Origin: Lamellibrachia columna
Taxonomy: Eukaryota > Annelida > Polychaeta > Sabellida > Siboglinidae
Direction of reading: 5' to 3'
Assembly (NCBI GenBank): GCA_963662155.1
Contig: OY759266.1
Coordinates: 281,001-345,000, forward strand
Length of the DNA: 64,000 nucleotides
The translations under genes and the position numbers were made by a program. This document shows positions 38,096 through 60,757 of this stretch, piece by piece. The stretch's first letter is position 1. The number at the start of each line of letters is the position of its first letter. The notes below the pieces were generated by a model, which saw nothing but the letters and a program-made list of their open reading frames with translations, did no database searches and had not been told where the DNA came from.

Positions 38096-38671
38096 TGGCG
38101 ACATTACCGACCAACTCCATGGGCAGGTTGATGGTACGGAGTTGTCGTGCAAATGGCTGCCATCCTGTTGGATCGGTCTTTCTCTTACGCAACAGATCAT
38201 TCACGAGATCCACCACGTTACTTCCGGCAACCGGCACACCCTCGTGTATCAGTTCGCCACGAGCATCTCTTTTGAGATGCTCCATCAAACGTCTGGCTTT
38301 GGCCTGCATGGTCTTGGGAACGGTGTCCACAACGTCGGTCTCTATTCCGCTACTAAGTGCTCCTACTGCTCCCTCCGGCACCACCGCTACCCCTACCACC
38401 GCCCCCGGTCCCGACGCTGCTGATTACATCGACTCGTTCACCGAGACCATGCGTACCGGTTCCTTTACATGTTTGTCGGACAAGACGTTGTACCGCTGCA
38501 ACACCTGATTATACAGTGTTACTTTGGTCCTGTCGTCGAGGTCCTTTCTATCGAGAATGGTCATCATCTCGTCATCGAGGGCTTGCACCTTCTTACCTAG
38601 GGTATCCGTCGGAGGTGGGGTGGTGGTGGTGAGCGAAGTGTGTCCAACAGTCGCGGGTCTAGCAAGGCCAT
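38096..38671 (-). pseudogene. copy B: conserved element protein of the MALLDPRLL...LVNDLLR type
   Basis: Last gene of copy B. It opens with MALLDPRLLDTLRS 23 nt after the stop of the preceding gene. Downstream are VTLYNQVLQRYN and, in another frame, ARGELIHEGVPVAGSNVVDL with LVNDLLRKRKTDPTGW and INLPMELVGNV. I recognise this N- and C-terminal signature from polymerase-B-bearing virus-like elements of many invertebrates, where it follows the short basic protein; its function is unknown to me. At least one frameshift and a stop (near 38600 and 38430) break it, and the (CCG)n(CTG)n repeat has replaced the 3' end. Confidence 0.7.
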
Positions 38672-38693
38672 CTTGCGTGCGTGTTCCACTTCT

Positions 38694-39062
38694 CTACCTC
38701 TTCAGCAGCACCTCTCGGAGCAAGGGTAGAAAGACCGAACTTGCCAACTGTGCTAGGAAGTCCGATAGGAAGCCTCCGCTCTGACCCTCACCGACCTGCT
38801 GTTGTAGTAAGATGCATCTCCTCCTGCCGGCTGATGTTCGTCTCTGAGACAACTCGCGTAATTTCGTTCTGTATTTACTCAAACGTCGCCTCTGTAAATC
38901 GGTCAATGGAATGTTCTTTTTTAATATGTTGTAGGCACACTCGGCCAGTGCACACAGCAGATCGGCGTCGGCGTTAGCGATGATGACTCTTCTCAGTTTG
39001 GTGCTCTTGTATCTGTTCAGAGCCTGTATGCACAAAATGTGTCTCTTCACCAGGTCAGACAT
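38694..39062 (-). CDS. copy B: short basic protein with glycine/hydrophobic tail
   Basis: About 122 codons from MSDLVKRHILCIQALNRY to a Leu-rich end. Order: a helix-forming start, the conserved block ANADADLLCALAECAYNILK, a basic stretch with RRRLSKYRTKLREL, then QQQVGEGQSGGFL and a hydrophobic tail. This layout (LVKRH start, LxxALAECAxNxL, Lys/Arg block, GGFL, hydrophobic end) is common in Polinton- and adintovirus-like elements, where it has been compared with small adenovirus core-type proteins; I treat that as unproven. Start chosen because a TATA box lies 34 bp upstream and homology begins there. The frame is intact although its neighbours are broken. Confidence 0.75.
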   Translation of the reverse strand: MSDLVKRHILCIQALNRYKSTKLRRVIIANADADLLCALAECAYNILKKNIPLTDLQRRRLSKYRTKLRELSQRRTSAGRRRCILLQQQVGEGQSGGFLSDFLAQLASSVFLPLLREVLLKR

Positions 39063-39095
39063 GGTGCGAATGAAGAGACGATCCACGCACTCGGT

Positions 39096-39104
39096 CTTTT
39101 TATA
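39096..39104 (-). promoter_or_regulatory. TATA box of the short basic protein gene
   Basis: TATAAAAAG on the - strand, 34 bp before the ATG at 39062, implying a very short leader. Confidence 0.55.
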
Positions 39105-39123
39105 CCTTCGGTAAGTACACGTA

Positions 39124-39683
39124 CTAAACACCGTCGTCTGGATAGATGTTCGTACATAGATAACCGTACGGTACCGACGTGGCGTCTTTAAAAGCCTCTT
39201 GTACGAACTTCGCGCATCCCGGATACATCTGACGAGCCAAGTGCAACATCTGCGATGCGTCACGGGGATTCTTGAACACCACCATGTACTGAGAGTTCAG
39301 ACTGACGGTACGACTCTCCTTGTTTTTAGGGAACAGGTTCTGTACGAGATTCAGTACGGACGTTTTCCTGTGATGACTTTTTTAGTGAACAAGGTCGTGA
39401 CCCGTTCGTCCGTTTCCGCCATGAGATCTTCTATGACGATGAGGTTCCTCGTTGCCGAATCGAACATGCTTGCGTTCGGCAACCCTTCCTCGAACCGCAC
39501 GTCGACTAAGTCCATCGTTGCGTAAGCCTCTTGTCATTCTCCATAACACCACGTGATCCTTTCGGGGGGTGGATCGATCATCGCAGCAGCGTGACGTAGC
39601 ATACGCGTCACGAAAGTGCTTTTGCCGCATCCCGTCGGTCCGGCGACGATGCACATGAAGGGATGTTTCCACCGTGCATCCAT
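39124..39683 (-). pseudogene. copy B: packaging-type P-loop ATPase, broken
   Basis: It begins MDARWKHPFMCIVAGPTG with the Walker A motif GPTGCGKST near residue 16; a Walker B-like NLIVIEDLM lies near residue 76. Later segments QYMVVFKNPRD and LARQMYPGCAKF fit the ATPase that follows the polymerase in Polinton/adintovirus-like elements (A32/FtsK-related DNA packaging motor). Two breaks: an in-frame TGA at 39534-39536 and a one-base shift in an A run at 39378-39383. The gene starts 38 nt after the polymerase stop. Expected role: powering DNA entry into capsids. Confidence 0.8.
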
Positions 39684-39721: not shown

Positions 39722-42700
39722 CTACTCGTCCACCGGACTCGTGGTCACCCAGTCCTCGTGCACCACGCGTTTGGCGTAGAAGTAGTTGAGGGCCGCCCGT
39801 TCCTGTACGTACATCAACACCGTCGAGTGACGCACCCGGAACCCACGGTTCGTTCCACTTCCGCTCCGACGGTTGGTGAGCACCTCCACGAACGCGTCCT
39901 TGTCGATGGTGTTGTGACGTTTGCTCAATCCTTTGGTTCTGGACTTGTCGGTAGCTGCGAAGCAACAGTACGTCTTGCTGCACAACCCCACGAACTCGTC
40001 ACCGGACCACTCGACCTTGAACAGACCCGGTGTCCTCTTGTCGAACGCTCTGCGCGCCTTACAGCACGCCTCGTCACCGGTCCACAGGCGATCGGCGAGT
40101 CAACAGCGCACGTACTCGTTTCGATGTTCGTCACAACATTTGGTCGGGAGCCATTCGGAACAATGTTGGAAATAATGTTCTCATATTTCCGGGGTCACGA
40201 GGTCATCGACGGACTCACCAGCCAAGGCCAAATAGGCACTATCTGTATCCATCTCGCAGTACTGGAACAGAGGGCGATCCAGCTATCTGTTGACAAAGTC
40301 GTAATAGAACTGTAACATGCGAATCTTGGTATACTGCAGAACGAAGAATCCCACGTGTACGGGCAGGGCGTACGTGACTGTTTTCATCTTTATCTCGTAC
40401 GCATCGTCGACGACGATGTCGAGTTGCCGGAACCGTCTATCGTTGACCATGAGCGATGCCGCCTTCTCCGTGCAGTAGTTGACGTCACCATGTCAGTCCA
40501 CGTTGGTGATGGTCTTTCCGTAGCCCGAGTTCCCCAGCAACTTCATGGTGTCCGCGATGATGGTCTTGTGTCGGTGGACGTCTCCCTCGCGACGGGCCGT
40601 GGACACTGCATCGCCGAACCGCTGGAAACACGGAATCGGATCGTACTCGATGACCTGGTAGACGTGCGTCACCTCGAGTCCGTGGTCCAGATACCATCGC
40701 AACAGGGGCGTTGCGAGCAATATCTTATCACCTCGATAACTGCCCACGAGCATGCGCCTCGGAGTCGTCATGATGCTGTGCTCTTCGGCGTATCGGCGCA
40801 TGAACGATCCGAGATCGTCGCGCGTCATACTGATGTTCTTGAACACGGGCTGCATCTCGGCAAAGTGCTCACGCAATTGATCAAATGTCACACTCGATCA
40901 TACCGAACACGGTTCCGGCACGCACGGCGCTCAGGATCTGTTGCGACGTCATCATCCACCGCGCGTGTCGGCGTCGGGGAAATGCAGCATCCAGACACTT
41001 TTTACGGCCGGATCTCTTCTCATCTCCTTCCACTCGCATTCCCACAGCTCGACGACCTTGACAAAGTGAAGTAGGTAGGCGGTGTTCTTTCGGGTCTCGG
41101 CGAGCAGTTGGGTCATGGGTTTCCTGTTGACGGTGTTCACCTCTTGTCGGGTGCACGGGTGACCACGGAAAAAACATCCATGGAACTGATACGCTGTGTT
41201 CGTCTTACTGCACCACCCGTCTACCAGAAGTTTGCCTATTCTCTTCTCTCGCCCGTTTATCTGTTGTCGTTTGGGACGTGCTTTCGGATTCCCAAGTCAA
41301 CCATTCCACAGCCATCTGTCCTTACAGCTGCGCCGATTCGGGGCGGAAGTAGTTATCTTCCCGTCGTCGCGTGTACCATCCCATAGGCATGTCTTGCATG
41401 AGCGACCATAGGTACAGCGCGTTCGCATCGTATCCGACGATCGACCGACACGGACGAGCAGCCTCTCCGTACTCGTTCTGACGTAGCGTGGTGACCCCTT
41501 TCTCGTGATAGCGGTGAAAACTGAGCGAAGGACCACCAACCACGTTATCTTTGACGAGGTTATGAAGATCTTTATTCTTCTCGGTGAAAATGGTAAAGTA
41601 GTTCTTCTCTGGAAGATCGTTGAACAGGTACAGCAAGGTCAGACCAGGTACGCTGATGCCTTGCTTGAACATGTCTATGCCACGTTGCTAGTATAATGCA
41701 AACTGTCTGTCGACGGCCTGCAGAAAGGGAACCACGTCCCTATTGTTGTACCAGACGAGAAAGTCTCCTTCGTTCTTCAGTCTACTGAAAAAGGCCTCTT
41801 TCGGTGGAAGTGCGGTGTCGTCGAGCCTTTCCAGACAGTCCATGTACTCGTACGGGAAATGACCTTTCGTCACCTCGCATCCGTACGCTTTCAGATACTT
41901 GTCGTAGCTGAACCCAGGGGCTATGTAGTTGGTCATGTCTAGGAATTTCAGCTGATCCGTCGACAGACATATGAAAGTGTTGTTGCGTCTGATGACGAAA
42001 AATGACCCAATACCATCGTTATCTTCTTCTTTCTCTTTGTCCTCTTGCTCCTTCTTCTTCTTCTTGTTCATCTTCTTGTTCCGCTGTCTTTGACGTGGAC
42101 AGGAAGTAGGGTATGAGGAACTGTTTGATCGCATTCAGATCATACTTACCCGAATTGAACCCAATGACGGGTAATTGATGCATCCATCCATAAAGTTGTC
42201 CCACTCATCGCTGGCAAGATATTCATCATGGTGCTTACCAACTTGTTGCTGCCTCCATCCGTGGCGAGACATTTCACTTGCTCGTGCCCGGGTACGTTGG
42301 ATGCCACGCTGACGCTCACCGGGACGTGACGTGCAACCCAATGAACCTTGCCACTGTCCGACGGAAGTTGTTCGGTGTCGAACCAACACTCAAAGTCAAA
42401 GGTGACCCAGTAGGGTTAGTACCGCAATGCCTCAGCGACTCGAATATTCTCGTCGTCCAGCCGTTCGAACACCGACGGGGTCGAATGGTACACGCCACCA
42501 GGATACACTCGACGCACACACACACACACCCGTACACGTACGCTCGTGTCTACGCAACTGCCATGCGCTCTTCCATAAGGAGGCACCGCACTTTCGACAT
42601 TGATATGAGTGGCTGTACATGCGTACATCTTGGATGTAGGAAAAGTGCGTCTCGTACAGATTGAGGTGTAGTGTGTTAGGGTAATAACAACGATCTACGG

Positions 42701-43956
42701 ACGAGTTCGGCAGTCGTCTTTCCATTCTCTGCATTCAGCTCGACGAGTCTGTATACGCACACGTTCGTCTCAAACGTGGTCTCTATACAATATAGGTCAT
42801 CCATGGTGACCCCGGCAAATTCTTCCATGGGTACATCGTCTTGGTCGTATGCCTCGTACATAGTCTTCACCGCTGGTTCCAACCGATATAGATCGCATCC
42901 ACGATGCAGGGCCAGACACCGGAAGAGACACAGATTGTCGGTGTACCTCGTCCCACGTTTGCGGTCGTATTCCAGACCGACGACGGTTTTGTTTTTCTTG
43001 ATGTAGACTGGAAGAGGGGTCGCATGTACACATCCTATGGGATGATCGATGGTGCGGTTGACGAAGAAGGTGACATTGGTCACGAGTTGGCACACCCACG
43101 CAGAATCCGGTCTTTGATCGATGGCCCACTGCAAGACGTCGGTTTCTCGGATGCGTTCGAGAAAGTCATCAAAGTCCTTGCTGTTGGTGATGAGACTGGG
43201 CTCGTCCAGGTAGCGTCCACAGCAATTGCACGAGGAATGATAGTACTTGTATCAACCCGTGTTCTTGTTTCTCAGAACGAACCCGTAACTGAGGTTAATC
43301 TTGAACGCGTTGGTCTGTTCCTGGAACATGATCTTCAAAGGAGCCTCTAGAGCAGTCGTGTCTAGCGTAGTTAATCTGTAATCGTACCTGCACTGGAGGG
43401 GTCCTCTCGACACACGTGTCCTTATGGTCGACCAGTGCGCTCGAACGATATCTAGCAGTTCCGTCGACAGAGTGTTGGCGAAGGGGAGTCGAGCGGGTGG
43501 ATTGATGGGATCTTCTTCGGTAACGGGTAGGTGGTGGGGTGTGGTTTATTCCCTTTTTGATCTCTTCGGTGATGGTGGCTCGTTGACGTCGGTACACGAG
43601 GTTCATGCATGTCTGGTCAGGTTCTCACGTCTATCGAACTTCCGTCCGCATTTCGTAGACGTGAAGACGGTGGTGTTTTTTCTACGACTACAACTACTAC
43701 TACGACGACGACGACGACTCAGACGACATACCGACCTTACGTGATGCTGTAGATCGTCCCATCTCCCGAACGTTGCATCACATTTACGCAGGTATTTCGT
43801 TCTCTTTACCTGGTCACTAGGTGGCACCACTGCTGGTGGTGCGACGGAATACGAGTGTATGTCCCAAGATGGTGTCGAGTGACACTCCACGTGTCGTCGT
43901 AGCTCTGCATACGTGTCGAGTGCAAGTCCACAGTGACGACATAGATGACGTTTCAT
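39722..43956 (-). pseudogene. copy B: zinc-finger DNA polymerase B (protein-primed type), broken
   Basis: Starts MKRHLCRHCGLALDTYAEL, a C2H2 finger, with two degenerate fingers after it. It shares with copy A the NLCLFRCLALHRGCD block and the exonuclease and palm region. Unlike copy A it keeps the 3' half: GYDANALYLWSLM (palm motif A), LLGNSGYGKT near 40500 (motif B), MDTDSAYLALAG near 40230 (the catalytic DTD of motif C), and a C-terminus with GTNRGFRV and YFYAKRVVHED. This fits DNA_pol_B_2-type polymerases of Polintons and adintoviruses, which replicate linear DNA from a protein primer. It is broken by many frameshifts, a TAG near 41690 and a 22-codon in-frame deletion near 41766. Confidence 0.88.
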
Positions 43957-44635: not shown

Positions 44636-44690
44636 CTACAGATAAACATAATACTACTACTGCGATCAAGTGTGTGTGTGTGTGTTTTTT
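44198..44690. other. copy B: spacer where copy A has terminal exons
   Basis: The tandem terminal exons of copy A are not recognisable here. It includes a (TA)n block at 44576-44632 and a short (TG)n. Confidence 0.45.
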
Positions 44691-45333
44691 TTTATCACGT
44701 TTGAACATGTTTGTTTGGTATTTTATGTGGCCCTGCCATCTCTGAATCGATATGACATGTGTTATGGTTCTACAGACGCCTGTCATCACTTCGTCGACAC
44801 TGAATCCAGTACGATAACATGCCGTTATTATGATGTTCGTTATACCCTCCTCGATCATAACGATACAGGTTCAATATAGGGTGCTGGGAGTGGTGAGTCC
44901 TCTGACGACGACGCCGACGATGATGGGGTTGTCTCGACGATGATGCGGTCGTCCTCTTCATCATCTCACTCCTGTGTTAGAGGGATGACTGGAGGTGATG
45001 CTGGGCTAAACCTGTGGGGAGGAGGTGATGCCGGACTGTCGTATGTAGAGTCCTCTGACGATGATGGAGTTGTCGGTGTTGTCTCGATGACCATGCCGTC
45101 GTCCTCTTCGTCATCTCCCTCCTGTGTTAGAGGGATGGCTGGAGGTGATGCTGGACTAAACCAGTTGGGAGGAGGTGATTTCGGACTGTCGTATGTACTT
45201 TCTACTTTCGGTGCGCAGTTTTTTGTCCAGTACTAGCCTCAGATCGTTCTCAGCTGGACGCTTGCCCGATGCTGTCGTCATCCGCACCGGCGCGGTACTG
45301 TAGGCCTCCTGTAGTTGATGTAGACCCGTTCAT
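44690..45333 (-). pseudogene. copy B: second acidic protein gene, broken
   Basis: The start (ATG at 45333, then a frame with LHQLQEAY) aligns with LEQLQNAY of the intact copy A protein at 55305. A Pro/Ser-rich acidic region with FSPASPP follows; this block of about 130 bp is duplicated in tandem (44920-45050 and 45051-45180). The end, FSVDEVMTGVCR, matches TVEEVTVDVCR of copy A. Several stops and shifts separate the pieces. Function unknown; see the copy A gene. Confidence 0.65.
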
Positions 45334-45401
45334 CTCTATAGACATGAAAAGACAACGACATGTTCAATAACATTACCAGGGACACCGTCCACGCTCTTCT
45401 C

Positions 45402-45439
45402 CTGCCCATAGAGTTGGTCGGTAACGTCGTGAGGAGAGA
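45402..45439 (+). pseudogene. + strand scrap of the element's last gene
   Basis: CTGCCCATAGAGTTGGTCGG and the following bases match, with about six changes in 38 nt, the - strand end of the conserved protein at 38096-38140 (LPMELVGNV; here LPIELVGNV). It is in the opposite orientation to the rest of copy B and ends just before a (TA)n block. Confidence 0.5.
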
Positions 45440-45483
45440 CTACTATATCACTCTCACTAGATATGACGATAGCAGTGTCATGC

Positions 45484-45484
<1 letters not shown>

Positions 45485-45556
<72 letters not shown>
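45485..45556. repeat. (TA)n microsatellite in copy B
   Basis: About 35 TA units, inserted in or next to the first acidic gene of copy B. Confidence 0.95.
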
Positions 45557-45558
<2 letters not shown>

Positions 45559-45741
45559 TGACGCGGGACTACTAAGACTAGGTGCTGCGGATGGAAATAT
45601 TACCTCTATATCGTATTCGTAATTATCCAACCACTCCTTTACCTTATGAACGACCGTCTCGTCGCCCTCTCCTTCCTCCACCTCCACTGTCGATGCGCAC
45701 GCTGTTGCTACACGTCGTAGTTCCTCCCTGACGTCCTCGTC
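45557..45741 (-). pseudogene. copy B: first acidic protein, second exon, broken
   Basis: The acceptor tgtgtttag precedes a phase-0 frame running from 45741 through EVEEGEGDETVVHKVKEWL to a serine/proline-rich stretch, then (TA)n. KVKEWL plus the following acidic/Ser-rich region parallels KVMQWL in copy A (54794). The frame fits direct splicing from the 21-codon first exon at 46230-46168. Confidence 0.65.
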
Positions 45742-45752
45742 CTAAACACATA

Positions 45753-46230
45753 TTACGCCCCTGCTACTTCTAGTACTGATACGGTATAATTAACATACTT
45801 ATTCGTCACACGTTTTTAATGGTCGCCATGACACTGCTCTCTCGTAGTGGTGCGAGTGCCGCATACCGCTTTGCCTCTGACGACAGAGCCATGTACTGGT
45901 TGGCAGTGAAACCTAAATACTTTGTCGCCAATTCGACGAACACGGTTACCCAACATTCACCCCCTTCCCAATCCGACAGTAACAGTCGCATGGCGAACCT
46001 GTACACGACCCCCAGTTGCCATAGATGAACCAGACAACGAAATCCTTTTCTCTCCGGGTGAACACCTTTCTGACGCTGTTGACAGGACGGATAGACGATG
46101 TAACGGTCCTGGACAGCACCGGTGATGATTTTTAACGGAGTTTAAAGACATGGGTACCGTTACTCACTTCTGACTGCAGTCGTGACAGAGTCATCTCGGG
46201 CGTCATGTTGACATATCGCTGTGCGGCCAT
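45753..46230 (-). pseudogene. copy B: RPA-C-like OB-fold protein, broken
   Basis: Starts with ATGGCCGC like copy A. The first 21 codons end at a strong splice donor (GAA|GTGAGT, 46167). Reading on, the zinc-ribbon region has CQQR where copy A has CQQC, so one zinc ligand is lost. VVYRFAMRLLLSDWEG and YLGFTANQYMALSSEAKRYA match the copy A protein. Frameshifts lie after the first exon and near 45806. The stop is 11 nt before the acceptor at 45741, as in copy A (16 nt). Confidence 0.8.
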
Positions 46231-46351: not shown

Positions 46352-46917
46352 TTATCGCGACCGTTGAACGGCTGATGTAGCGTGTGATGTCTGGTCGTTA
46401 TCTCCATTGCACTTCGCTCGATCATAAGACCGACTGGTAGTGCGTTCGCGACAGTTACGCGGGGGGTTCTGTCGAATAAATTCACGCACCTCCATGAGTA
46501 TGTGTCCGAGCATGTTCTGACCAGTCTGACCACTGTAGCTCAGTGCAGTCCAATACAATTCCCCGCTCTTTACCCATTCCTTCAATTCAGGTTGCTGCGT
46601 GTCTAACAGCCACTTATGTAGTGTTGCATCGCGAAATTTAACGGCGACTAACGCATACATTACAGAATATCTCTGTTTGTTCCATTCTGCGGGTAACTAT
46701 ACATTCTCACGAATGCTCTTGCTGAGGTATTTCGCTTGTAGTCCAGTCCGTGTGGCTATCATTTTTTCTGCTGTCTTCACATCTCCATAGTGCATGCATT
46801 TTTCCACATGTACGCCGCTTCGAGTGTGTTAAAGACATGATTCCACACCTGTATCCTGCAGACATAGAAATTGGACAAATAACTATTTCCTCCTCTGAAA
46901 TATATAGAACGATCCAT
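46352..46917 (-). pseudogene. copy B: NADAR-domain protein, broken
   Basis: The N-terminal part from MDRSIYFRGGN includes YLSNFYVC, then NTLEAAYMWKN, and stops near 46795. The rest, in another frame, has FRDATLHKWLLDTQQPEL and SGQTGQNMLGHILMEVREFI. These are the NADAR family blocks and align with the intact copy A protein. At least one frameshift and a stop break the gene near 46790. The start lies 299 bp from the divergent two-exon gene, versus 287 bp in copy A. Confidence 0.82.
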
Positions 46918-47215: not shown

Positions 47216-47304
47216 ATGCCTGTGTCTAGCGTCGGGCTGTTTTCCGATTTGTTGGTGGTCTACCACCTCATGGGAACGGCGTTGTTCGTCGTGTTGGATC
47301 AATT
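47216..47304 (+). CDS. copy B: divergent small gene, exon 1
   Basis: ATG followed by 29 codons and two bases, then a perfect donor GTGAGTATTT. The encoded start (MPVSSVGLFSDLLVV) is hydrophobic and may be a signal or anchor segment. The phase fits the exon at 47533. Copy A has a gene in the same position and orientation relative to NADAR, with the same exon-1 size class (86 versus 89 nt), the same phase and the same GTGAGTATTT donor. I do not recognise the protein. Confidence 0.6.
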
Positions 47305-51391: not shown

Positions 51392-51525
51392 ATTGATGAC
51401 AGAGATTGACCAACTCTAACGAGACGCCGAAAGTAGTTAGCAGAGGTTTTTGGGACCTCTTATCAAGAGCATCAAAAGATCAAAGGAAAACCACCCTAAT
51501 ATCGCCCACCGCTAATGAGTGCGCG
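51392..51525. other. stretch without a recognised gene
   Basis: Short sequence between the LINE remnant and a CpG-rich patch. Confidence 0.5.
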
Positions 51526-51625
51526 CAGCCAATCAGAAAGCAGCACTAGACCTTGGAGCGCCCCCTGGCGGCGGCGGCGGCGGCGCAGCGTCGCGCGCAT
51601 GCGCGTGCCGCGCCCCTAGCGACCG
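51526..51625. promoter_or_regulatory. CpG-rich patch with CCAAT and NRF-1-like motifs
   Basis: CCAATCAG at 51529-51536, a (GGC)n run, and the palindrome GCGCATGCGC at 51595-51604, all in strongly CpG-rich sequence. This is the make-up of a TATA-less housekeeping-type promoter; no exon can be linked to it. Confidence 0.45.
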
Positions 51626-52251
51626 GAGGAGGAACGAACAGTGACCGGTGGTCATCTATGATGGACATAGGAACAAAGAAAATACACGTAATATCACCCA
51701 CCCACCACCACCCACCCACCCACCCACGACAACACGTGACCGTGACCTCGACGGAGTGACCAGTCCGAGTGGTTAGCTAATGACAACTGGACGTCCGAAC
51801 GACTGGAGTTAACTGTAAGCCGAAGCGTTTATCCAGCTGTGAGCCATAGCGCGAGATCAAAGGACGCTAATCTGTACAATGTAGCAAGTTAGCTGAGCTA
51901 ATAAGTGATAAACAGCAACTAAGTTGCAGTGACGACATTGATGTGGGACCGCGGCATGTTATAGCCTGTTATATGTAGTGGACATAATACGTGATAAAAT
52001 TAAAACCGATAAAGATAAGACGAATGTGTAAAAGTGAATAATTAGTCGACATGCATGGCTACAATATAACCGCTGGACGAGGGAAATCGGACCGTTCGTT
52101 AAATAAAATGTAGCAGGACGAAAATGGACATAATATATAATATAATATAATGTGCCAACACGCAGTTGGAGCAAGAACGCAATACAAGACGGGAATATAA
52201 GGTGATGCAAATTTAATAAAACGAAAAAAGAACAAGTACAAATATAAAAGC

Positions 52252-52321: not shown

Positions 52322-52428
52322 TATAATAAAGTCAAGTTCATGTTGGAACGGTGTTTAATACCGCCAACAACGGTAGTTATAATAAAGTCAAGTGCATGTT
52401 GGAACGGTGTTGAATGCCGTCAGCAACG
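52321..52428. repeat. 54-bp tandem duplication
   Basis: Two copies of tataataaagtcaagttcat followed by gttggaacggtgtttaatac, with small differences. The right copy overlaps the 3' end of the - strand frame at 52388. Confidence 0.85.
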
Positions 52429-52988
52429 ACCGCCGGATGGCGCGAGTGGTCAACTTGCGCGCCAACGCAATGCGTAACGATACAGATCGACGACGTCGGA
52501 AGAGTGATGGGAGATGGACGGGACCGAGGTGAATGTGACGGAAAACGGTTGCGGGCGATGGGGCGTGGATGAGGACCAACTCATGCATCACCCGCTCCCA
52601 TTTGGACATATGGGCCCGGAAGGCCATCACCTCGACCTCGTGGGCGTCGGTGGCGGTGTCTATGGCGGCTATGTCGTCGTCCCACTCTCCGGCGTCGTCG
52701 AAGTCCTCGTCGGCGGCGTGAGCGTCGGTGACGGCGGCGTCGATGGCGGCCAAGTCGTCATCCCACGACTCTGTGGAGGCGGTCGAGGTATTGCGAAATC
52801 CATCGCCGTAATGAAACTCAATGGCAGTCATGACGTGGCGCCAACGGCTGGCATGTACACCGAAGGCCGACAGGAGACCGGCGTCTTAGAGCGCCTCCCG
52901 AAACAGGACGGTCGCCTGGCAGCTCCGGCGTAGGGGGGCGTCCTCCATCAACTCTATGAGCACGCACGCCCAGTTGAAACATGGAATG
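52388..52988 (-). CDS. copy A: divergent small gene, exon 2 with an in-frame stop
   Basis: The acceptor tacttattacag (exon from 52988) continues exon 1 in phase and reads 34 codons (NWACVLIELMEDAP) to a TAA at 52886-52888. The same frame stays open after that stop for another 166 codons to 52388. That part is acidic, with an internal repeat (ESWDDDLAAIDAAVTDAH and EWDDDIAAIDTATDAHEVE), and ends basic (SLFRRRR). In copy B the corresponding exon is also acidic after a W-x-A-V-x-x-E-L segment and has no stop there. Either the TAA is a recent nonsense mutation or the short product is real. Unrecognised protein. Confidence 0.55.
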
Positions 52989-53119: not shown

Positions 53120-53205
53120 ACAATACCCTGCAATAGAGGTATCGACTGCAGGAGTTCCGCGACGACGACGAACTCCATGCAATCGTGCAAGGCGAATACA
53201 GACAT
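53120..53205 (-). CDS. copy A: divergent small gene, exon 1
   Basis: ATG and 28 codons (MSVFALHDCMEFVVVAEL) plus two bases, then the donor GTGAGTATTT. Exon size, phase, donor sequence and position relative to NADAR match copy B (47216-47304), although the residues are diverged. Unrecognised; the hydrophobic centre is too short to call a membrane segment firmly. Confidence 0.6.
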
Positions 53206-53491: not shown

Positions 53492-54103
53492 ATGAACCAA
53501 CCTATACGGTTTAAAGGTGGTAAACAGTTCCTGTCCAATTTCTACGCCTGCAGGATACACGCCTGTAATAGAGAATTCACCAGTGTCGAAAGCGCGTATC
53601 AATGGCAGAAGTGCATGCATCATGACGACATGCAGACGGCGCAAAGGATGCTGGCCACGCGCACGGGTCTACAGGCGAAACAGCTCAGCAAGTGCATACG
53701 AGAAAAGGAAATGTTACGCGCAGAATGGATGAGACAACGATATGCAATAATGTATGGGTTAGTGACCGTTAAATATCGCGATCCAACCCTACGTAAACGA
53801 CTGTTGGACACTGGGCATTCCCAGTTGCAGGAATGGGTCAAGAGTCGGGAAGGATACTGGGGTGCACTGACATACAGTGGTCAAGCCGGTCAGAACATGC
53901 TAGGTCATATAACCATGCTAGTACGCGAGGCCATACGATTACATCAGAGTACAGCCAGATTGCAGACATCCAGCGGCCGCATCACGCGATCGACCAAGGG
54001 TCGGACGCAGATACCAGACATGCAGCATCAGCATCGGCGTCACGCGCTCGACCAAGGGGCGACGATAAGAAAGCGCGCCACAGTCGGGGAGAGGGCTATA
54101 TAA
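53492..54103 (+). CDS. copy A: NADAR-domain protein
   Basis: Intact 203-codon frame. Residues 5-150 form a full NADAR (YbiA/DUF1768) domain: IRFKGGKQFLSNFYAC at 5-20, the SVESAYQWQK block at 31-40 with its conserved acidic residue (E33), and GQNMLGHITMLVREAI at 133-148. Characterised NADAR proteins remove ADP-ribose from guanine in DNA or from related N-glycosides and can reverse DarT-type DNA ADP-ribosylation. Here it could protect element DNA or act in NAD/ADP-ribose metabolism; that is inference. Residues 152-203 are basic, His/Arg-rich and low-complexity. The ATG follows aagtcacc, a fair Kozak context. A TAACGTCA motif just upstream of the start also occurs before the copy B gene. The stop codon lies within the TATA box of the next gene. 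Confidence 0.85.
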   Translation: MNQPIRFKGGKQFLSNFYACRIHACNREFTSVESAYQWQKCMHHDDMQTAQRMLATRTGLQAKQLSKCIREKEMLRAEWMRQRYAIMYGLVTVKYRDPTLRKRLLDTGHSQLQEWVKSREGYWGALTYSGQAGQNMLGHITMLVREAIRLHQSTARLQTSSGRITRSTKGRTQIPDMQHQHRRHALDQGATIRKRATVGERAI

Positions 54104-54195: not shown

Positions 54196-54693
54196 ATGGC
54201 CGCCACCACCGTCACCAAGACAACCAGCGACCAGGACGCCGAGATGATGACCACTCTGAGCCAACTCGAGAAGCAGGTAGGTAACGGTACCTATATAATA
54301 AGACGACCGTTAACCATAGTACAAATCGCCGTTCAAGAGAAATATATCGTTTATCCATCATGTCAGCAGTGCAACAAACGGGTCATTCCCGAAAACAATG
54401 GCTATGTGTGTCCCATTCATCGATGGCAGCGGGGTGTAGTGTATCGGTTCGCCATGCGTGTCCTCCTACAAGACGCCATCGGCAGCGAAGTGTGGGGAAC
54501 CATATTTAATGACAAGGCTGTCCAGTTGCTAGGATACACGGGGAACGATTACATAAACATGACGTCAGATGCCGAGCGGTATGCAGCACTGGACATGCTG
54601 CGGGGGGCCCGAGTCATGGTGACCATTCGTAAACGTATGGCAGGACCGTACGTAAATTACACGGTGGCCAACATGGAAGTAGTCACAGTGTGA
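54196..54693 (+). CDS. copy A: RPA-C-like zinc-ribbon OB-fold protein
   Basis: 165 codons. After a polar 27-residue start, residues 28-165 resemble the C-terminal DNA-binding domain of RPA70/replication factor A: a zinc ribbon with C56, C59, C72 and H75 (C-x2-C-x12-C-x2-H), then GVVYRFAMRVLLQDAIGSE and NDKAVQLLGYTGNDYINM, which fit the OB-fold strands and the LLG segment. Likely role: binding single-stranded DNA during element replication. The start is supported by the TATA box at 54096 and by copy B beginning with the same ATGGCCGC. In-frame extension upstream (to 53833) runs through the NADAR gene and is a shadow. The first 27 codons end at a splice donor (54277) used for an alternative product. 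Confidence 0.78.
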   Translation: MAATTVTKTTSDQDAEMMTTLSQLEKQVGNGTYIIRRPLTIVQIAVQEKYIVYPSCQQCNKRVIPENNGYVCPIHRWQRGVVYRFAMRVLLQDAIGSEVWGTIFNDKAVQLLGYTGNDYINMTSDAERYAALDMLRGARVMVTIRKRMAGPYVNYTVANMEVVTV

Positions 54694-54709: not shown

Positions 54710-55264
54710 GCTGGCTCGATCGTCGCTGCGGCAGCCACGGCAGTGGCAACCGGAAGCGGCGATGACATCATCGACGGCGATGGACGCGCTAAGGTAATGC
54801 AATGGTTACAGGCTAACAGCGCGGAAATACTGTTCTCCTCCTCGGTGGACAGCGGTTCGCCGCCACCAATGATTGTAATATCAGATGACGACCAGGGGGA
54901 GAACAGTGCGTCGTCACATTATAGCATTAGCAGTAGCGATGATATGGAGGCTACTGTTAGCGGTCTAGATAGGTTACGTGATAGATCCGAAGCCATGACC
55001 AATGAAAACATATTCTATAAGGCGCTAGAGGCCGCCAGTGTGCGATATGCCAGTGACGAGGTTGAACGCATAATGAATCTAAACGATGATAAGGATCGTT
55101 ACGTGCCATCGACCAGCATGGTCATGCACGTCTTGCGGTGGCTATCTATAGATGTCATCGCAACGTGCGGGACCATGAAATGGCGTAACCGAGTGACCGA
55201 ATTGGTTAGAAAGAGTATGTACGAAACATACGACAATAACGATATGCAGGGCGACGCGGAATAA
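54710..55264 (+). CDS. copy A: first acidic protein, exon 2 of an alternative transcript
   Basis: There is no in-frame ATG near the beginning of this frame; it opens after an acceptor (ccgttgacag) 16 nt past the RPA-like stop. The donor AGCAG|GTAGGT at 54277 and this acceptor are both phase 0, so splicing out 433 bp joins the 27-codon RPA-like start to 184 codons here. Copy B has the same architecture with a 426-bp intron. The product has KVMQWLQANSAEILF, an acidic/serine region (SDDDQGENSASSHYS) and a helical C-terminal half with MHVLRWLSIDVIATC. Unrecognised; might be a regulatory or DNA-mimic-like protein, but that is a guess. Translation from the internal ATG at 54797 is an alternative. 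Confidence 0.65.
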   Translation, partial: AGSIVAAAATAVATGSGDDIIDGDGRAKVMQWLQANSAEILFSSSVDSGSPPPMIVISDDDQGENSASSHYSISSSDDMEATVSGLDRLRDRSEAMTNENIFYKALEAASVRYASDEVERIMNLNDDKDRYVPSTSMVMHVLRWLSIDVIATCGTMKWRNRVTELVRKSMYETYDNNDMQGDAE

Positions 55265-55304: not shown

Positions 55305-55667
55305 ATGGGACTGGAGCAACTCCAGAACGCGTATAAACGCGACCTGGCGGCGCTGTACCACGACACCGAGGATAAGGTGACACAAGCGGCGAAGAGACTG
55401 AAGACATCCTCGATGACAACCTCGTTCTACCCACCACCACCCCTGACCAATGCCGACTCGCCACCGGCAAACCAAGAGGAGTTGCTACCACCGTGGACCA
55501 TCGAATCGGAGTCTGAGTCCGTGGAAGACGCGTTCATTATAAACACCCCTCCCCATTACTACAGTGAGGATGAGGATGCGATTGCCTCATCCCCCGAGCC
55601 CGCGAAAGCCGACGATGCGGACTTCGAATTTAGTCCCGCGTCGCCACCACTCGTCCAGCGCAAGCAG

Positions 55668-55699
<32 letters not shown>

Positions 55700-56117
55700 A
55701 TCCCTGACGACCCTCTATGTATTCCCTGATAAAACCGTCGTATTGACCCGCGACGGCGAACAGGTGGACCTCCCCGATCAACGTACGATCACACACGCAA
55801 AGCCGGAGCCGGAGCCGCAGCCGTCGACGTCGACGGCGCATGCCCACGAAGAGGACGACGACGACGCCGACGACGAAGAAGAAGAAGACGCGGACAAGAC
55901 GGGCAAGGTGTGTTTCCACAAAATGCAACTGCACCTCGCACGTATGATTACTAAACTGTGGCGGACAACCGCCCCTGCCACGGTGGAAGAGGTGACGGTC
56001 GACGTGTGTCGGGCACTGGCCGGCACGGTACTCTCCGCCGAGTATCAAGAACACATAATGCGATACGTGCGATGTGCCATCCGTCAACCGCGGGCAATAA
56101 CGCGACCGCTTAGGTAG
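55305..56117 (+). CDS. copy A: second acidic protein
   Basis: 270 codons. Order: a helical N-terminus (LEQLQNAYKRDLAALYHD), a Pro/Glu-rich middle, FSPASPP, an Asp run near residues 123-132, a second acidic run near 184-196, and a helical C-terminus containing TVEEVTVDVCRALAG. The ATG directly follows ttctgttcaatag, which is itself acceptor-like and phase 0, so this could also be an internal exon of the unit starting at 54196. A donor-like AAG|GTGTGT at 55908, phase 0, could join the acidic part to the terminal exons at 56220-56823, replacing the C-terminus. Copy B has a broken homologue. Function unknown. Confidence 0.65.
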
Positions 56118-56219: not shown

Positions 56220-56327
56220 AGTGAAGAGTATGACGACGAGGCACCCGTCCTCCCAGCCAGCATTCGGGAGCTATCTGGAGTATTGTTCTCCGCGTATATG
56301 ACGTCGTCAACAAAGTATTATTATTAG
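56220..56327 (+). CDS. copy A: candidate alternative terminal exon 1
   Basis: Follows the acceptor ggtgttatgtag. Phase-0 frame of 35 codons to TAG: acidic start SEEYDDEAPVLP, then IRELSGVL. First of four similar units. Confidence 0.5.
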   Translation, partial: SEEYDDEAPVLPASIRELSGVLFSAYMTSSTKYYY

Positions 56328-56419: not shown

Positions 56420-56521
56420 GATGACGTACCTGTGTCACCGATTGAACTGCGTAGACGTGCATGCCGACAATTAGTGGTGATGATACTTGAATACATGATA
56501 TCAACAAACGATGAACAGTAG
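56420..56521 (+). CDS. copy A: candidate alternative terminal exon 2
   Basis: Follows the acceptor ttgttctgtag. Phase-0 frame of 33 codons to TAG: DDVPVSPIELRRRACRQL then ILEYMIST. Same layout as its neighbours, acidic-P-V then a basic amphipathic helix, but most diverged. Confidence 0.5.
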   Translation, partial: DDVPVSPIELRRRACRQLVVMILEYMISTNDEQ

Positions 56522-56539: not shown

Positions 56540-56680
56540 GAGCAGGAGAGGGAGGACGAGGTGCCAGCAAGGGACGAGATGAGACGTCCATTACATGATT
56601 TAATGAACGACATTGCTGACCACATTATTGAAATTAGTAAAGATAATAGAAAACATTATATCAGTATACGAATACAGTAG
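56540..56680 (+). CDS. copy A: candidate alternative terminal exon 3
   Basis: Follows the acceptor tgtgttatgtag. Phase-0 frame of 46 codons to TAG: EQEREDEVPARDEMRRPLHD then LMNDIADHIIEI. Clearly homologous to exon 4 (ARDE, LHDLM/IHDLI). Confidence 0.55.
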   Translation, partial: EQEREDEVPARDEMRRPLHDLMNDIADHIIEISKDNRKHYISIRIQ

Positions 56681-56700: not shown

Positions 56701-56823
56701 GAGGAGAGGGAGGAAGAGGTGGAGGAAGCACCCGTGCTAGCAAGGGACGAGAGAAGACGCACAATACATGATTTAATACAGATAATTGTTGATTTCATGA
56801 TTGAAACCCCCGCATTTCAATAA
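56701..56823 (+). CDS. copy A: candidate alternative terminal exon 4
   Basis: Follows the acceptor ttgttatgtag. Phase-0 frame of 40 codons to TAA: EEREEEVEEAPVLARDERRR then TIHDLIQIIVDFMIE. Its APVL matches exon 1 and ARDE/HDL match exon 3, showing that the series arose by tandem duplication. Confidence 0.55.
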   Translation, partial: EEREEEVEEAPVLARDERRRTIHDLIQIIVDFMIETPAFQ

Positions 56824-57212: not shown

Positions 57213-57218
57213 AATAAA
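57213..57218 (+). terminator. copy A: polyadenylation signal
   Basis: AATAAA followed by GT-rich acgtgttgtgagtggtgttg. I see no other AATAAA between 54196 and here, so it may serve all transcripts of the alternatively spliced block. Copy B keeps the same signal and downstream gtgttgtg. Confidence 0.65.
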
Positions 57219-57337
57219 ACGTCTTACAATGAACGAAACGTGTTGTGAGTGGTGTTGTCATGAGTTGAAATATAACCCGTAGCCATGGATAGCGGGACAC
57301 ACAGTTGCCAATACCACCATAGGTGATACACCCTTCA

Positions 57338-57443
57338 CCAATAACCTCCACCATCACCACCACCACCACCACCACCACCATCACCACCACCACCACCACC
57401 ACACGTACTATATAGCTGTACTAAGAACCGCACTCTCTCAGTT
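57338..57443 (+). promoter_or_regulatory. copy A: polymerase promoter with CAC repeat, TATA and initiator
   Basis: A CACCAC-rich run (57340-57402), the TATA box CTATATAG (57408-57415) and the initiator TCAGTTGTAGACAC (from 57438), exactly 30 bp apart. Copy B keeps all three parts in the same order. Confidence 0.7.
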
Positions 57444-57471
57444 GTAGACACGTAGAGCAGAGCAGAGCAGC

Positions 57472-60400
57472 ATGAAAAGACACCAATGTCGTCACTGCGG
57501 ACAGGTGCTCGACACCTATGCAGCGCTCAAACGCCACCTAGCGAGTCATGCGACACCGGCAGTGATCGAACATACGTATTCGGTAGCGCCACCACTAGAT
57601 GTGCCACGAGAGGTGCCACGGGAGGTGCCACCTAGCGAACAGGCAAAGCGAACGAAGTATTCCTGTAAATGTGATGCAACGTTCGACATATGGGACGATC
57701 TGCAACACCATGTGAGGTCCGTATGTCGTCTTAGCAGTAGCCGTAGCCGTAGCAGTAGCAGTAGCAGTAATAGAAAACAGACCACAGTGTACACATGTGC
57801 GAAATGTGGAATGATGTTCAATAAACGCCTTAACCTGACCAGACACGTACGAAATGCGTGTACCGCCGACGACGACGACACGACGCCACCATCGCCTAAG
57901 ATATCAATCAGGGAAGACACCACACCCAACCATCCACTCGTTACCGATGCCGACCCTATAGACCCACCTGCCCGACTCCCCTTCGCCGACAACCTGTCGC
58001 CGGAACTGTTAGATGTCGTACGAGCGCACTGGTCGACCATACGGACACGTGTAACGAGAGGTCCTCTTCAGTGCAGGTACGATTACAGAGTAACGACGCT
58101 GGACACGACCGTTCTAGAGCCGTCGTTGAGGAACGTGTTCCAGGAACAGACCAACGCGTTCAAGATTAACCTCAGTTACGGGTTCGTTCTGAGGAACAAG
58201 AACACGGGTCAATACAAGTACTACCATCCCTCGTGCAACTGCTGTGGACGCTACCTGGACGAGCCCAGTCTCATCACCAACAGCAAGGACTTTGATAAGT
58301 TCCTCGAACGCATCCGCGAAACCGACGTCTTGCAATGGGCCATCAATCAAAGACCGGATTCGGCGTGGGTGTGCGAACTCGTGACCAATGTCACATTTTT
58401 CGTCAATCGCATCATCGATCACCCGATAGGATGTGTAGGAATGACCGACCTTCCCATGTACATCAAGAGGAACAAAGCCGTCATCGCATTGGAAAAGGAG
58501 CCCGTCCATGCCAAGAGGTACAATGACAACCTGTGTCTCTTTCGATGTCTGGCCCTGCATCGCGGATGTGAACGGCGTCGATTGGAACCGGCTGTGGAGA
58601 CGCTGTACGCGACGTACGCCCAAGACGGCGTACCCATGGCAGCATTTGCCGGGGTCACGATGGACGACCTCTATCGTGTCGAGACCACGTTCGAAACGAA
58701 CGTGTGCGTGTACCGTCTCGTAAAACCGGATGGAGATGAGGCGGAGGAGGAGGATGGTGGAAAGTCGACCGCAGAACTCGTTCGTCGCTCGGTATGTAAG
58801 TACCCGGACACACTCTACCTCAATCTGCACGGGACGCATTATTCCTACATCCAGGATAGACGCAAGTACTGTCACTCGTACAGATGTCGGAAGTGCGGTG
58901 ACTCGTTGTGGAAAGACGCATGGCATCTACGCAACCACGAGAGCACGTGTACGGGGGGTGTGCGCCGAGTCTATCCTGGTGGCGTGTACCATTCGACTCC
59001 ATCGGTGTTCGAACGTCTGGCAGACGAGAACATCCGAGTGGCCGAAGCGTTGCAGTACTATCCGTACCGAGCCACCTTCGACTTCGAGTGTTGGTTCGAC
59101 ACCGAACACCTTCCGGCGGACAGTGCCCAGGTTCACTGGGTTGCGTGTCACGTCCCGTTGAGCGTCAGCGTGGCATCCAACGTACCCGGACACGAACAGG
59201 TGACATGCATCGTCACGGACGGAGACGTCAACAAGTTGGTGAGCACCATGATGACTGTCCTACAAGCGATGAGTGAGGCCGCGTACGACAAGATCAAAGA
59301 CTCGTACGATCATGTGCTGGAACAACTCGCAGAAGAGGTGACGAAATGGGACGCACGGGAGGAGGCTGCACGGGACGCAGCTGCACGGGAGGCCGGCGAG
59401 AAGAAAGGGCGAGCGGCAACCAATCCGTACAAAACGCTGATGGGACAAATGTATGGATGGATGCGTCAGTTACCCGTCATCGGGTTCAATTCGGGGAAGT
59501 ATGATCTCAATGCCATCAAACAGTTCCTCATACCGTACTTCCTGACGACTTCAAAGACCGACGTGGAACAGGACGAGGCCGCGGACGAGAGGGAGCAGGA
59601 GGGCAACAGGAAAGTCGAGACCGACGGCATCGGGTCAATGTTCGTAATCAAACGCAACAACACTTTCATGTGTCTTTCGACGGATCAGCTGAAATTCGTA
59701 GACATGATCAACTACATAGCCCCCGGGTTCAGCTACGACAAGTATCTGAAAGCGTACGGATGCGAGGTGACGAAAGGTCATTTCCCGTACGAGTACATGG
59801 ACAGGCTGGAGAGACTCGACGACACCGCACTTCCACCGAAAGAGGCCTTCTTCAGTCGACTGAAGAACGAAGGGATTTCAGACGAGGATTACGCCAGTTG
59901 TCAGGAGGCCTGGCGCGTCAATGGCATGACGACGTTGCGCGACTTTCTCGTCTGGTACAACAACAGGGACGTGGTTCCCTTTCTACAGGCCATCGACAGA
60001 CAGTTCGCGTTCTATCGACAACGGGGAATAGACATGTTCAAGCAAGGTATCAGCGTACCCGGTCTGACCCTGCTGTACCTGTTCAACGACCTGCCAGAGA
60101 AGACCTACTTTACCATCTTCAACGAGAAGAACAAAGACCTGAACGACCTCGTCAAAGCGAACATTGTAGGCGGGCCTTCGATCATCTTTCATCGCTATCA
60201 CGAGAAAGGGGTCACCACGCTACGTCGGAACGAGTACGGAGAGGCGGCTCGTCCCTGTCGAGCGATCGTCGGATACGATGCGAACGCACTGTACCTGTGG
60301 TCGCTCATGCAGGACATGCCTATGGGATGGTACACGCGACGACGAGCGGAGAAGGACTTCCGCCCCGAATCGGCGCAGCTGTACGGACAGATGGCCGGAG

Positions 60401-60757
60401 AATGGTTGACGTGGGAATCCGAACGCACGGGACGGTCCATACGGCATCAGATCAACGGACGAGAGAAGCGCATAGGCAAACATCGGGTGGACGGATGGTG
60501 CAGCGAGACGAAGACGGCTTATCAGTTCCAAGGTTGCTTTTTTCACGGTTGCTCGTGCAACCGAGAGGAGGTGAACGCCGTCAACGGGAAACCCATGGCG
60601 CAACTGCTCGCCGAGACCCGAAAGACCACCGCCTACCTACGACACTTTGTCACGGTCGTCGAGTTGTGGGAATGCGAGTGGAAGGAGATGAGACGAACAC
60701 CGGCCGTACGCAAGTGTGTGGATGCAGCATTTCCCCGACGTCGACACGTGCAATGGA
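57472..60757 (+). CDS. copy A: zinc-finger DNA polymerase B, 3' end lost
   Basis: About 1095 codons without a break, from MKRHQCRHCGQVLDTYAAL. Residues 5-26 are a C2H2 finger; two more finger-like segments follow (a degenerate CKC...H...C and CAKCGMMF...H...C near 105-128). Next comes a block typical of this family with NLCLFRCLALHRGCE near 350, a Cys-rich patch (CRKCGDSLWKDAWHLRNHE) near 465, and the 3'-5' exonuclease: Exo I FDFECWFD near 537, Exo II IGFNSGKYDLN near 670, Exo III YNNRDVVPF near 829. Palm motif A GYDANALYLWSLM is near 934, then DGWCSETKTAYQFQGCFFHG near 1005. The DTD-containing catalytic motif C, present in copy B, is missing: coding sequence stops at a junction with a LINE at about 60757 and reads ten foreign codons to a stop. 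Of the DNA_pol_B_2 (protein-primed) type; this copy could not polymerise. Confidence 0.92.

What the first reader, a model, noticed from the sequence alone, without database searches (positions are those of the whole stretch)
38096..60757. Two virus-like elements in back-to-back orientation with the same unusual gene set
Seen: copies A (+) and B (-) share the order divergent two-exon gene, NADAR, RPA-C-like protein, two acidic proteins, zinc-finger polymerase B; B continues with a packaging-type ATPase and two small conserved proteins. Known: the polymerase/ATPase/small-protein trio is typical of Polinton and adintovirus-like elements. Inferred: this is a lineage with a distinct early-type module (NADAR plus RPA-like SSB plus spliced acidic proteins) that I have not seen described. 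A is about 8.4 kb, B about 9.8 kb, and they flank a host first exon.
Basis: partly seen in the sequence, partly recalled or inferred. Interest (0 to 1): 0.88.

Follow-up and report, generated by a model that had tools for sequence, protein, structure and literature searches.

The report
Maverick virus elements with NADAR-RPA module
The two stretches are broken copies of an abundant virus-like mobile element (Polinton/Maverick type) in what looks like an animal genome; it carries an unusual gene block with a possible DNA-adduct-removing domain beside, and in many copies fused to, a single-stranded-DNA-binding domain, next to a set of short, apparently interchangeable exons.

Summary
Copies A (+, 51432-60757) and B (-, about 47730-38091) share a divergent two-exon gene, NADAR, RPA70-C-like protein, acidic exons and zinc-finger PolB. 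Both are truncated copies of a high-copy Polinton/Maverick element in this 880-Mb genome. Three other copies measured span 17.7-17.95 kb, with AGTAGT...ACTACT ends, TIRs and 6-bp target duplications. Pieces of other copies add packaging ATPase, rve-chromodomain integrase, a probable C5-type protease and, by position only, capsid genes. The early block is linked: present in 17 of 17 fetched loci, and 85 of 96 hexon-like copies have NADAR upstream on the same strand (random mean 0.17). Two corrections: in the main subfamily NADAR and RPA-C form one 402-codon frame (10 of 10 pieces; split in A); and the acidic region looks like a cassette of phase-0 exons, with three donors conserved in 18 of 18 copies and three or four short alternative last exons. 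Splicing is predicted only. That the NADAR-SSB protein cleans ADP-ribose off replicating viral DNA is inferred, untested. One search found no held paper with both 'NADAR' and 'Polinton'. New variant of a known kind; occurrence in other species could not be tested.

The parts
51432..51646 (+). Copy A: left terminal inverted repeat (AGTAGTTAGC...), preceded by 6 bp that may be half of a target duplication
   Evidence: inverted match to the right end of another copy, L026 7898-7684, 99.1% over 215 bp; termini
52388..52988 (-). Copy A: exon 2 of the divergent gene (frame interrupted in A; 196-197 codons open in 9 of the 11 subfamily-1 copies looked at, A counted)
53120..53205 (-). Copy A: exon 1 of the divergent gene, followed by GTGAGT donor; TATA box at about 53296
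   Evidence: donor present in 11 of 11 subfamily-1 copies, A counted; TATA
53492..54103 (+). Copy A: NADAR frame (in the main subfamily continuous with RPA-C as one 402-codon ORF; split in A)
   Evidence: PF08719 9.4e-18; fusion
54196..54693 (+). Copy A: RPA70-C-like protein; its first 27 codons are also the proposed shared leader exon (phase-0 donor at 54277)
   Evidence: PF08646 2e-12; PDB RPA70 hits; donor in 18 of 18 copies
54710..55264 (+). Copy A: acidic exon 2 after an AG acceptor, with optional phase-0 donor at 54794
   Evidence: acceptor and donor in 18 of 18 copies
55305..56117 (+). Copy A: acidic exon 3 with optional phase-0 donor at 55908
   Evidence: acceptor in 17, donor in 18 of 18 copies
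56220..56327 (+). Copy A: candidate alternative last exon u1
   Evidence: phase 0 after TTATGTAG
56420..56521 (+). Copy A: candidate alternative last exon u2
   Evidence: phase 0 after TTCTGTAG
56540..56680 (+). Copy A: candidate alternative last exon u3 (resembles u4; listed in 9 of 11 subfamily-1 copies)
   Evidence: u3-u4 alignment z 12.3
56701..56823 (+). Copy A: candidate alternative last exon u4; AATAAA downstream at 57213
57472..60757 (+). Copy A: PolB ORF (C2H2 fingers, OTU-like motif, palm motif A by eye), cut at 60757 by a junction with a reverse-transcriptase fragment
   Evidence: TATA at 57409
47216..47304 (+). Copy B: exon 1 of the divergent gene, GTGAGT donor
   Evidence: read from sequence
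47533..47730 (+). Copy B: proposed exon 2 of the divergent gene
   Evidence: read from sequence; inference
46352..46917 (-). Copy B: NADAR, broken
   Evidence: PF08719 1.5e-5 on the C-terminal piece, below cut-off
45753..46230 (-). Copy B: RPA-C-like, broken; phase-0 donor after 63 nt at 46167; TATA at 46321
44690..45741 (-). Copy B: acidic exons (first acceptor before 45741), decayed
   Evidence: read from sequence
39722..43956 (-). Copy B: PolB with palm motifs, broken
39124..39683 (-). Copy B: packaging ATPase, broken
   Evidence: N-terminal piece PF02456 28.3 bits, cut-off 21
38694..39062 (-). Copy B: 122-aa small protein, open
   Evidence: 75-77% identical to the gene at the same place in L026-L028
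38091..38693 (-). Copy B: third small protein, broken, runs into the (GCC)n/(GCA)n array
   Evidence: pieces 73-84% identical to L026-L028

Best explanation
A and B are truncated copies of two related subfamilies of an integrating, capsid-type Polinton/Maverick (adintovirus-like) element that amplified recently in this genome. Shown by sequence: 17.7-17.95 kb between termini with TIRs and 6-bp target duplications in three copies; a B-type polymerase with N-terminal zinc fingers; ATPase; chromodomain integrase; core genes downstream of the early block on one strand in the three copies read there. Inferred: an early block acts first. A divergent regulator and a TATA-driven early transcript face away from each other; the early transcript uses one leader exon (the RPA-C start), three phase-0 donors and five or six phase-0 acceptors, so that exons can be combined freely into RPA-C or into several acidic proteins with different short C-termini. 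The NADAR-RPA product coats single-stranded viral DNA exposed during replication, and its NADAR domain removes ADP-ribose from bases of that DNA, protecting it from a host ADP-ribosylation response. The acidic proteins probably regulate transcription or the cell state, as the adenovirus early region does. Rough odds by step: Polinton/Maverick element 0.95; phase-0 exon cassette 0.75; NADAR-RPA acting on viral nucleic acid 0.5, by removing ADP-ribose from DNA 0.3.
For: Linkage: NADAR, RPA-C, acidic exons and u1, u2, u4 in order in 17 of 17 loci, PolB start in 16; NADAR-hexon spacing in 85 of 96 copies, 81 at 13-15 kb, random mean 0.17. Fusion: one 402-codon frame in 10 of 10 subfamily-1 pieces; NADAR 3.5e-17 and Rep_fac-A_C 9.3e-12 on one ORF. 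Exon cassette: three donors pass the filter in at least 15 of 18 copies, all three are in 18 of 18 and phase 0; units keep acceptor and frame; B keeps the leader donor in phase and an acceptor after the RPA stop. Core genes: rve 1.4e-13, Chromo 2.3e-7, Adeno_IVa2 21.2 bits. Ends. Recent activity: TIRs 99.5, 100 and 93.2% identical; 95 of 96 scored hexon-like places without a stop. Constraint.
Against: No RNA data; splicing is predicted. The acceptor filter is weak: 16 AG sites passed it, most of them inside coding sequence, and u2 and u4 acceptors did not pass; their support is the pattern seen. Unit dN/dS is only weakly below 1 (0.47-0.51, bootstrap upper bounds 0.97-1.09 in five comparisons; the L019 and L020 rows mixed up units and are not counted). 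Acidic exon 3 is poorly conserved between subfamilies (34-35% of sites differ, over 330 gap columns). Fusion is not universal: stops lie between NADAR and RPA-C in 7 of 7 subfamily-2/3 pieces and in A, and in L008 the frame ends early inside RPA-C. PolB model poor (pLDDT 42) and OTU matches not significant, best E 0.24. RPA model poor. Hexon-, penton- and 133-aa proteins have no Pfam match and the hexon-like one no meaningful PDB match. NADAR activity and substrate are untested; the ADP-ribose link rests on recall.
Confidence: 0.45

Rival explanations
1. A plain Polinton/Maverick whose accessory region happens to hold captured genes (NADAR and RPA-C) with independent, dispensable roles; the fusion in one subfamily is a frame accident, with RPA-C made from its own internal promoter.
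For: Fusion absent in the 7 subfamily-2/3 pieces and in A; TATA and ATG just upstream of RPA-C inside the fused frame in A, TATA kept in B; variable accessory regions are normal in vertebrate Mavericks (PMC8097293, passages).
Against: The linker stays open in 10 of 10 subfamily-1 pieces and the block is missing from none of the 17 loci fetched, which were chosen by their NADAR.
Confidence: 0.3
2. NADAR acts on RNA or on nucleotide metabolism (removing ADP-ribose from RNA, or cleaving NAD-derived or riboflavin-type intermediates) rather than on viral DNA.
For: Best curated NCBIfam model is the riboflavin-intermediate N-glycosidase TIGR02464 (70.5 bits, just under its cut-off 73.7); a NADAR anti-phage family also matches weakly, 47.7 bits against a cut-off of 240.
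Against: Fusion to, and conserved neighbourhood with, an ssDNA-binding-type domain.
Confidence: 0.25
3. The u1-u4 units are not exons but decaying tandem repeats.
For: Tandem similarity; no transcript; the dN/dS interval reaches 1 in four of five comparisons; the u1-u2 spacer has about as few substitutions as the units in three of four subfamily-2/3 copies, though with 18-27 gap columns.
Against: Acceptor and frame kept across 18 copies of three subfamilies with few lapses in the scan: u1 not listed in L020, u2 not in L014, u4 not in L016 whose piece ends near it. Against four subfamily-2/3 copies the units differ at 8-26% of sites with 0-6 gap columns, the spacer upstream of u1 at 43-51% with over 100 gap columns.
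Confidence: 0.1
4. A or B is an assembly chimera.
For: Sharp junction of A with a retroelement at 60757.
Against: A's NADAR frame has an identical second copy elsewhere, and the two loci are 99.5% alike over 3.6 kb; A's left terminus and flank are clean. The 60757 junction itself was not tested.
Confidence: 0.05

Closest known systems
Polintons/Mavericks of vertebrates (PMC8097293, passages seen)
   Same: 6-bp TSD, TIRs, (AGT)2//(ACT)2 ends, size range, and a gene set with PolB, ATPase, integrase and, probably, protease and capsid genes
   Different: Core genes here on one strand in the three copies read (PolB, ATPase, two small genes, integrase, capsid-type genes, protease); early block with NADAR, RPA-C and predicted introns (intact vertebrate ones: eight, or seven, conserved intronless ORFs); 'NADAR' occurs 0 times in that paper's main text
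Adintoviruses (definition in PMC11071296, section 16 read)
   Same: Chromodomain rve integrase, adenovirus-type ATPase, probable C5-type protease, OTU-like PolB motif
   Different: Hexon kinship could not be tested; 'NADAR' and 'RPA' occur 0 times in that paper's main text
Adenovirus early region (recalled)
   Same: Works alike in design: alternatively spliced small acidic early proteins beside divergent promoters (here predicted)
   Different: No sequence kinship of the early proteins shown; array of phase-0 alternative last exons
Phage NADAR proteins (PHROG 1017)
   Same: Similarity over residues 3-155, 6.2e-33; 30-35% identity in the 15 phage records listed of 418
   Different: Here in an integrated eukaryotic element and, in one subfamily, fused to an RPA70-C domain

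Membership tests
Polinton/Maverick | Terminal inverted repeats | tested here: met
   206-221 bp, 93.2-100% identical, in 3 of 3 copies
Polinton/Maverick | 6-bp target site duplication | tested here: met
   3 of 3 copies, read by eye from the printed flanks
Polinton/Maverick | (AGT)2//(ACT)2 end motif | tested here: met
   3 of 3 copies, plus A's left end; motif from PMC8097293
Polinton/Maverick | Protein-primed PolB with TP and vOTU domains | tested here: inconclusive
   DNA_pol_B_2 above cut-off in 3 of 5 relatives, none in the window's truncated ORF; Cys355 invariant and His456 in at least 90% of 40 sequences; model too poor to test folds
Polinton/Maverick | Retroviral-type integrase | tested here: met
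   rve 1.4e-13 in L026; the frame is broken in L028; absent from A and B, which are truncated
Polinton/Maverick | Packaging ATPase | tested here: met
   Adeno_IVa2 28.3 bits in the B piece and 21.2 in L026, cut-off 21
Polinton/Maverick | Double jelly-roll MCP and minor capsid protein | tested here: inconclusive
   438- and 273-278-aa ORFs at the expected place; no Pfam match; only a chance-level PDB match, E 1.1, for the 438-aa protein; folds not run
Polinton/Maverick | Cysteine protease | tested here: inconclusive
   Peptidase_C5 E 0.08, below cut-off; ASFV S273R E 0.053
Adintovirus | rve integrase with C-terminal chromodomain | tested here: met
   Chromo 2.3e-7 at residues 313-353 of 355
Adintovirus | PolB with N-terminal OTU-like domain | tested here: inconclusive
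   motif conserved; Foldseek OTU matches not significant, best E 0.24
Adintovirus | Hexon reciprocally recognisable by BLASTp | not testable with these tools
   no reference hexon at hand; viral-contig scan with the hexon-like protein confirmed none
NADAR | Domain profile | tested here: met
   65.4 bits, cut-off 35.1; PDB 8bau E 1.9e-5
NADAR | Hydrolase activity on ADP-ribosylated guanine (recalled) | not testable with these tools
   none
RPA70 C-terminal DNA-binding domain | Domain profile and zinc-ribbon ligands | tested here: met
   47.6 bits, cut-off 28.5; C-x2-C...C-x2-H read in A, second Cys replaced in decayed B

The most novel reading that the evidence does not exclude
The element carries a dedicated DNA-repair-like counter-defence: a NADAR-SSB fusion that strips guanine ADP-ribosylation from viral DNA during replication, together with a combinatorial phase-0 exon system that makes a family of early regulators. 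This would imply DNA ADP-ribosylation as an antiviral mechanism in animals.
Probability: 0.3. Interest if true: 0.82.

Novelty: new variant of a known kind. Interest (0 to 1): 0.62.

Why it matters
It shows a Polinton/Maverick lineage at high copy with many open frames in one genome, carrying an early module (NADAR-RPA, modular phase-0 exons) that the papers I could search do not describe for this group. The module makes a concrete question testable: do animals mark invading DNA with ADP-ribose, and do integrating viruses remove the mark? The high-copy, low-divergence set is also a good natural data set for dating amplification.

Tried and rejected
Rejected: chance similarity of A and B. Judged unlikely: assembly artefact (identical NADAR in a sister copy; the 60757 junction was not tested). 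Led nowhere: viral-contig scans with the PolB alignment, third small protein, RPA-C, 122-aa protein, hexon-like protein and ATPase (no relative confirmed in any of the 6 scans); PolB relative P0017 in the phage collection, no match; Foldseek on the poor PolB model; PHROGs and NCBIfam for PolB; Rfam and tRNA on the window (none); RPA fold. A regex test of the divergent gene found nothing in subfamilies 2/3 (0 of 7), which may mean only that the pattern was too strict. B's left terminus was not found: only a weak match of about 60 bp, score 40 against a shuffled maximum of 29 in 100. No polymerase phylogeny was made. The host species was not identified; 'animal' is inferred from the retrotransposons, repeats and intron signals.

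Full report
What is there. The window lies in an 880-Mb genome of 30 contigs, in repeat-rich, probably animal DNA with reverse-transcriptase ORFs and many minisatellites. Copy A reads on the + strand and copy B on the - strand. Both carry, in order, a divergent two-exon gene, NADAR, an RPA70-C-like protein, acidic exons and a zinc-finger PolB. B goes on to an ATPase and two small proteins. A begins at 51432 with a terminal inverted repeat and is cut at 60757 by a reverse-transcriptase fragment 98% identical to another in the window. B is decayed and ends in a trinucleotide array at 37472-38084.

More than chance. Piecewise A-B comparison gives dN/dS of 0.24 for PolB (811 codons; bootstrap 0.20-0.31), 0.19 for RPA (108 codons; 66 of 300 resamples lost to saturation) and 0.17 for NADAR (147 codons; 13 of 300 lost).

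The element in the rest of the genome. NADAR of A gave 150 scored places out of 1185 first-look candidates. I fetched 17 loci of 5.8 kb chosen from that list, of three subfamilies. All 17 show NADAR, RPA-C (partial match in L024 and L025), acidic 1, acidic 2 and units u1, u2, u4 in order; the start of PolB is seen in 16, and in L016 a tandem duplication pushes it out of the piece. Downstream pieces of three further copies show the PolB end, a 218-aa ATPase (Adeno_IVa2 21.2 bits, cut-off 21), a 122-123-aa protein, a 258-262-aa protein, a 355-357-aa integrase with rve core (1.4e-13) and C-terminal chromodomain (2.3e-7), a 273-278-aa, a 133-134-aa and a 438-aa protein, and a 159-aa protein with weak C5-protease likeness (E 0.08; ASFV S273R 0.053). 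The Pfam values are for L026; in L028 the integrase frame is broken. The 438-aa, hexon-like protein gave 96 scored places of 2199 candidates, 95 of them without a stop. Of these 96, 85 have a NADAR's list upstream on the same strand within 20 kb, 81 of them at 13-15 kb; random placement gives a mean of 0.17 (maximum 2 in 200 trials). Copy number is unknown; both searches give lower bounds.

Ends and age. In three copies the TIRs match over 206-221 bp at 99.5, 100 and 93.2%; the ends read AGTAGT...ACTACT, with 6-bp duplications outside them (AACGTT, ATGGTG, GTCGAT, read by eye from the printed flanks); the aligned length is 17,690-17,950 bp, in part including duplication bases. Intact vertebrate Mavericks have 6-bp duplications, this end motif most commonly, TIRs of 46-1447 bp and lengths of 12.7-24.6 kb (PMC8097293, passages). 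A's 5.8-kb piece is 94.1-98.7% identical, in the longest aligned stretch, to ten subfamily-1 copies, and 99.5% to its sister L002 over 3.6 kb.

The NADAR-RPA fusion. In 10 of 10 subfamily-1 pieces (L009-L018) NADAR and RPA-C lie in one frame of 402 codons; one ORF matches both Pfam domains. Of the shorter loci, L003-L007 have it too (three of these are copies already counted), L008 ends early inside RPA-C, and A and L002 are split. In 7 of 7 subfamily-2/3 pieces there are stops between the two. RPA-C matches solved RPA70 C-terminal domains (best E 6.7e-5, entry 4gnx). NADAR matches a phage family at 6.2e-33 and the solved NADAR 8bau at 1.9e-5.

The exon cassette. The RPA-C start holds a donor after 27 codons. 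In an alignment of 18 copies (17 loci and A), three GT sites pass as donors in at least 15 copies, and all three are kept in 18 of 18: 54277, 54794 and 55908 (window A numbering), all phase 0 (phases from the coordinates). Acceptors at 54710 (18 of 18) and 55305 (17 of 18) lead into open acidic frames; but that filter let 16 AG sites through, so it is weak evidence by itself. After 55908 come short units, each right behind TTATGTAG or TTCTGTAG, phase 0, each ending in its own stop, 33-46 codons long in A. Units resemble each other (u3-u4 z 12.3, u2-u4 8.9, u1-u2 4.0, u1-u4 3.2). Subfamilies 2/3 have three units; the fourth (u3) is listed in 9 of 11 subfamily-1 copies. Against four subfamily-2/3 copies the units differ at 8-26% of sites with 0-6 gap columns, the spacer upstream of u1 at 43-51% with over 100 gap columns; the u1-u2 spacer differs at 11-31% with 18-27 gap columns, and acidic exon 3 at 34-35% with over 330 gap columns. 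dN/dS of units is 0.47-0.51 with upper bounds of 0.97-1.09 (L019 and L020 rows dropped because the script mixed up units). B keeps the leader donor in phase, and an acceptor just after the RPA stop. TATA boxes precede the divergent gene, RPA-C and PolB in both copies (B's divergent one read), and an AATAAA follows the units in A. This is what the sequence shows; that it is spliced is inference.

Mechanism. Inferred: the integrase inserts the element; PolB replicates it by protein priming with strand displacement; RPA-C coats single strands; NADAR, tethered in the main subfamily, removes ADP-ribose from bases. That NADAR enzymes reverse guanine ADP-ribosylation, and that some shellfish make guanine-specific DNA ADP-ribosyltransferases, is recalled and comes from no call; the searches meant to check it failed.

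Known or not. Two papers on this virus group contain no 'NADAR' (PMC11071296 and PMC11071308, counts and passages; one section of the first read), nor does the vertebrate Maverick paper. In one search, the 20 papers listed of 158 all show zero occurrences of 'NADAR'. In one search, three of the 20 papers listed of 29 hold 'NADAR'; by their titles they are about phages; no held paper has both 'NADAR' and 'Polinton'. Subscription papers and most preprints were not searched, and the adintovirus founding paper is not held. PolB relatives are many: 991 proteins at E up to 1e-3, 12 of the 120 listed at 96-99% identity; whether those in other species carry the block is unknown.

Verdict. Membership in Polintons/Mavericks is well supported; adintovirus membership is likely, but one defining feature (hexon kinship) could not be tested and one (OTU fold) stayed inconclusive. 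The early module makes it a new variant of a known kind.

Noticed in passing
window 37472-38084: A 154-bp perfect (CTG)n and a 461-bp perfect (GCC)n array sit where copy B's third small gene breaks off; the gene's frame runs on as poly-alanine.
   Followed up: partly
G000, subfamily-2 pieces L020-L023 and L025: A TGA at the same codon (162) just after the NADAR domain in 5 of the 7 subfamily-2/3 pieces, and a single TGA in many subfamily-2 rows; probably inherited from a common source, so that NADAR ends there and RPA-C is separate.
   Followed up: partly
L016 4244-5533: Tandem duplication of the u1-u2 segment within one copy, a possible source of the repeated last exons.
   Followed up: no
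window 47920-48110: Clustered GGGTTAG-type telomere-like repeats near copy B's upstream end.
   Followed up: no
window 51120-51431: Copy A's left flank reads as reverse-transcriptase coding sequence, so A seems to be inserted in a retroelement fragment.
   Followed up: no
window 941-3684 and 7214-7779: Two arrays of the same 22-bp minisatellite separated by a retrotransposon ORF (4042-7164).
   Followed up: no
window 49527-49600: Possible host first exon with a signal-peptide-like start and a GT donor, between A and B.
   Followed up: no
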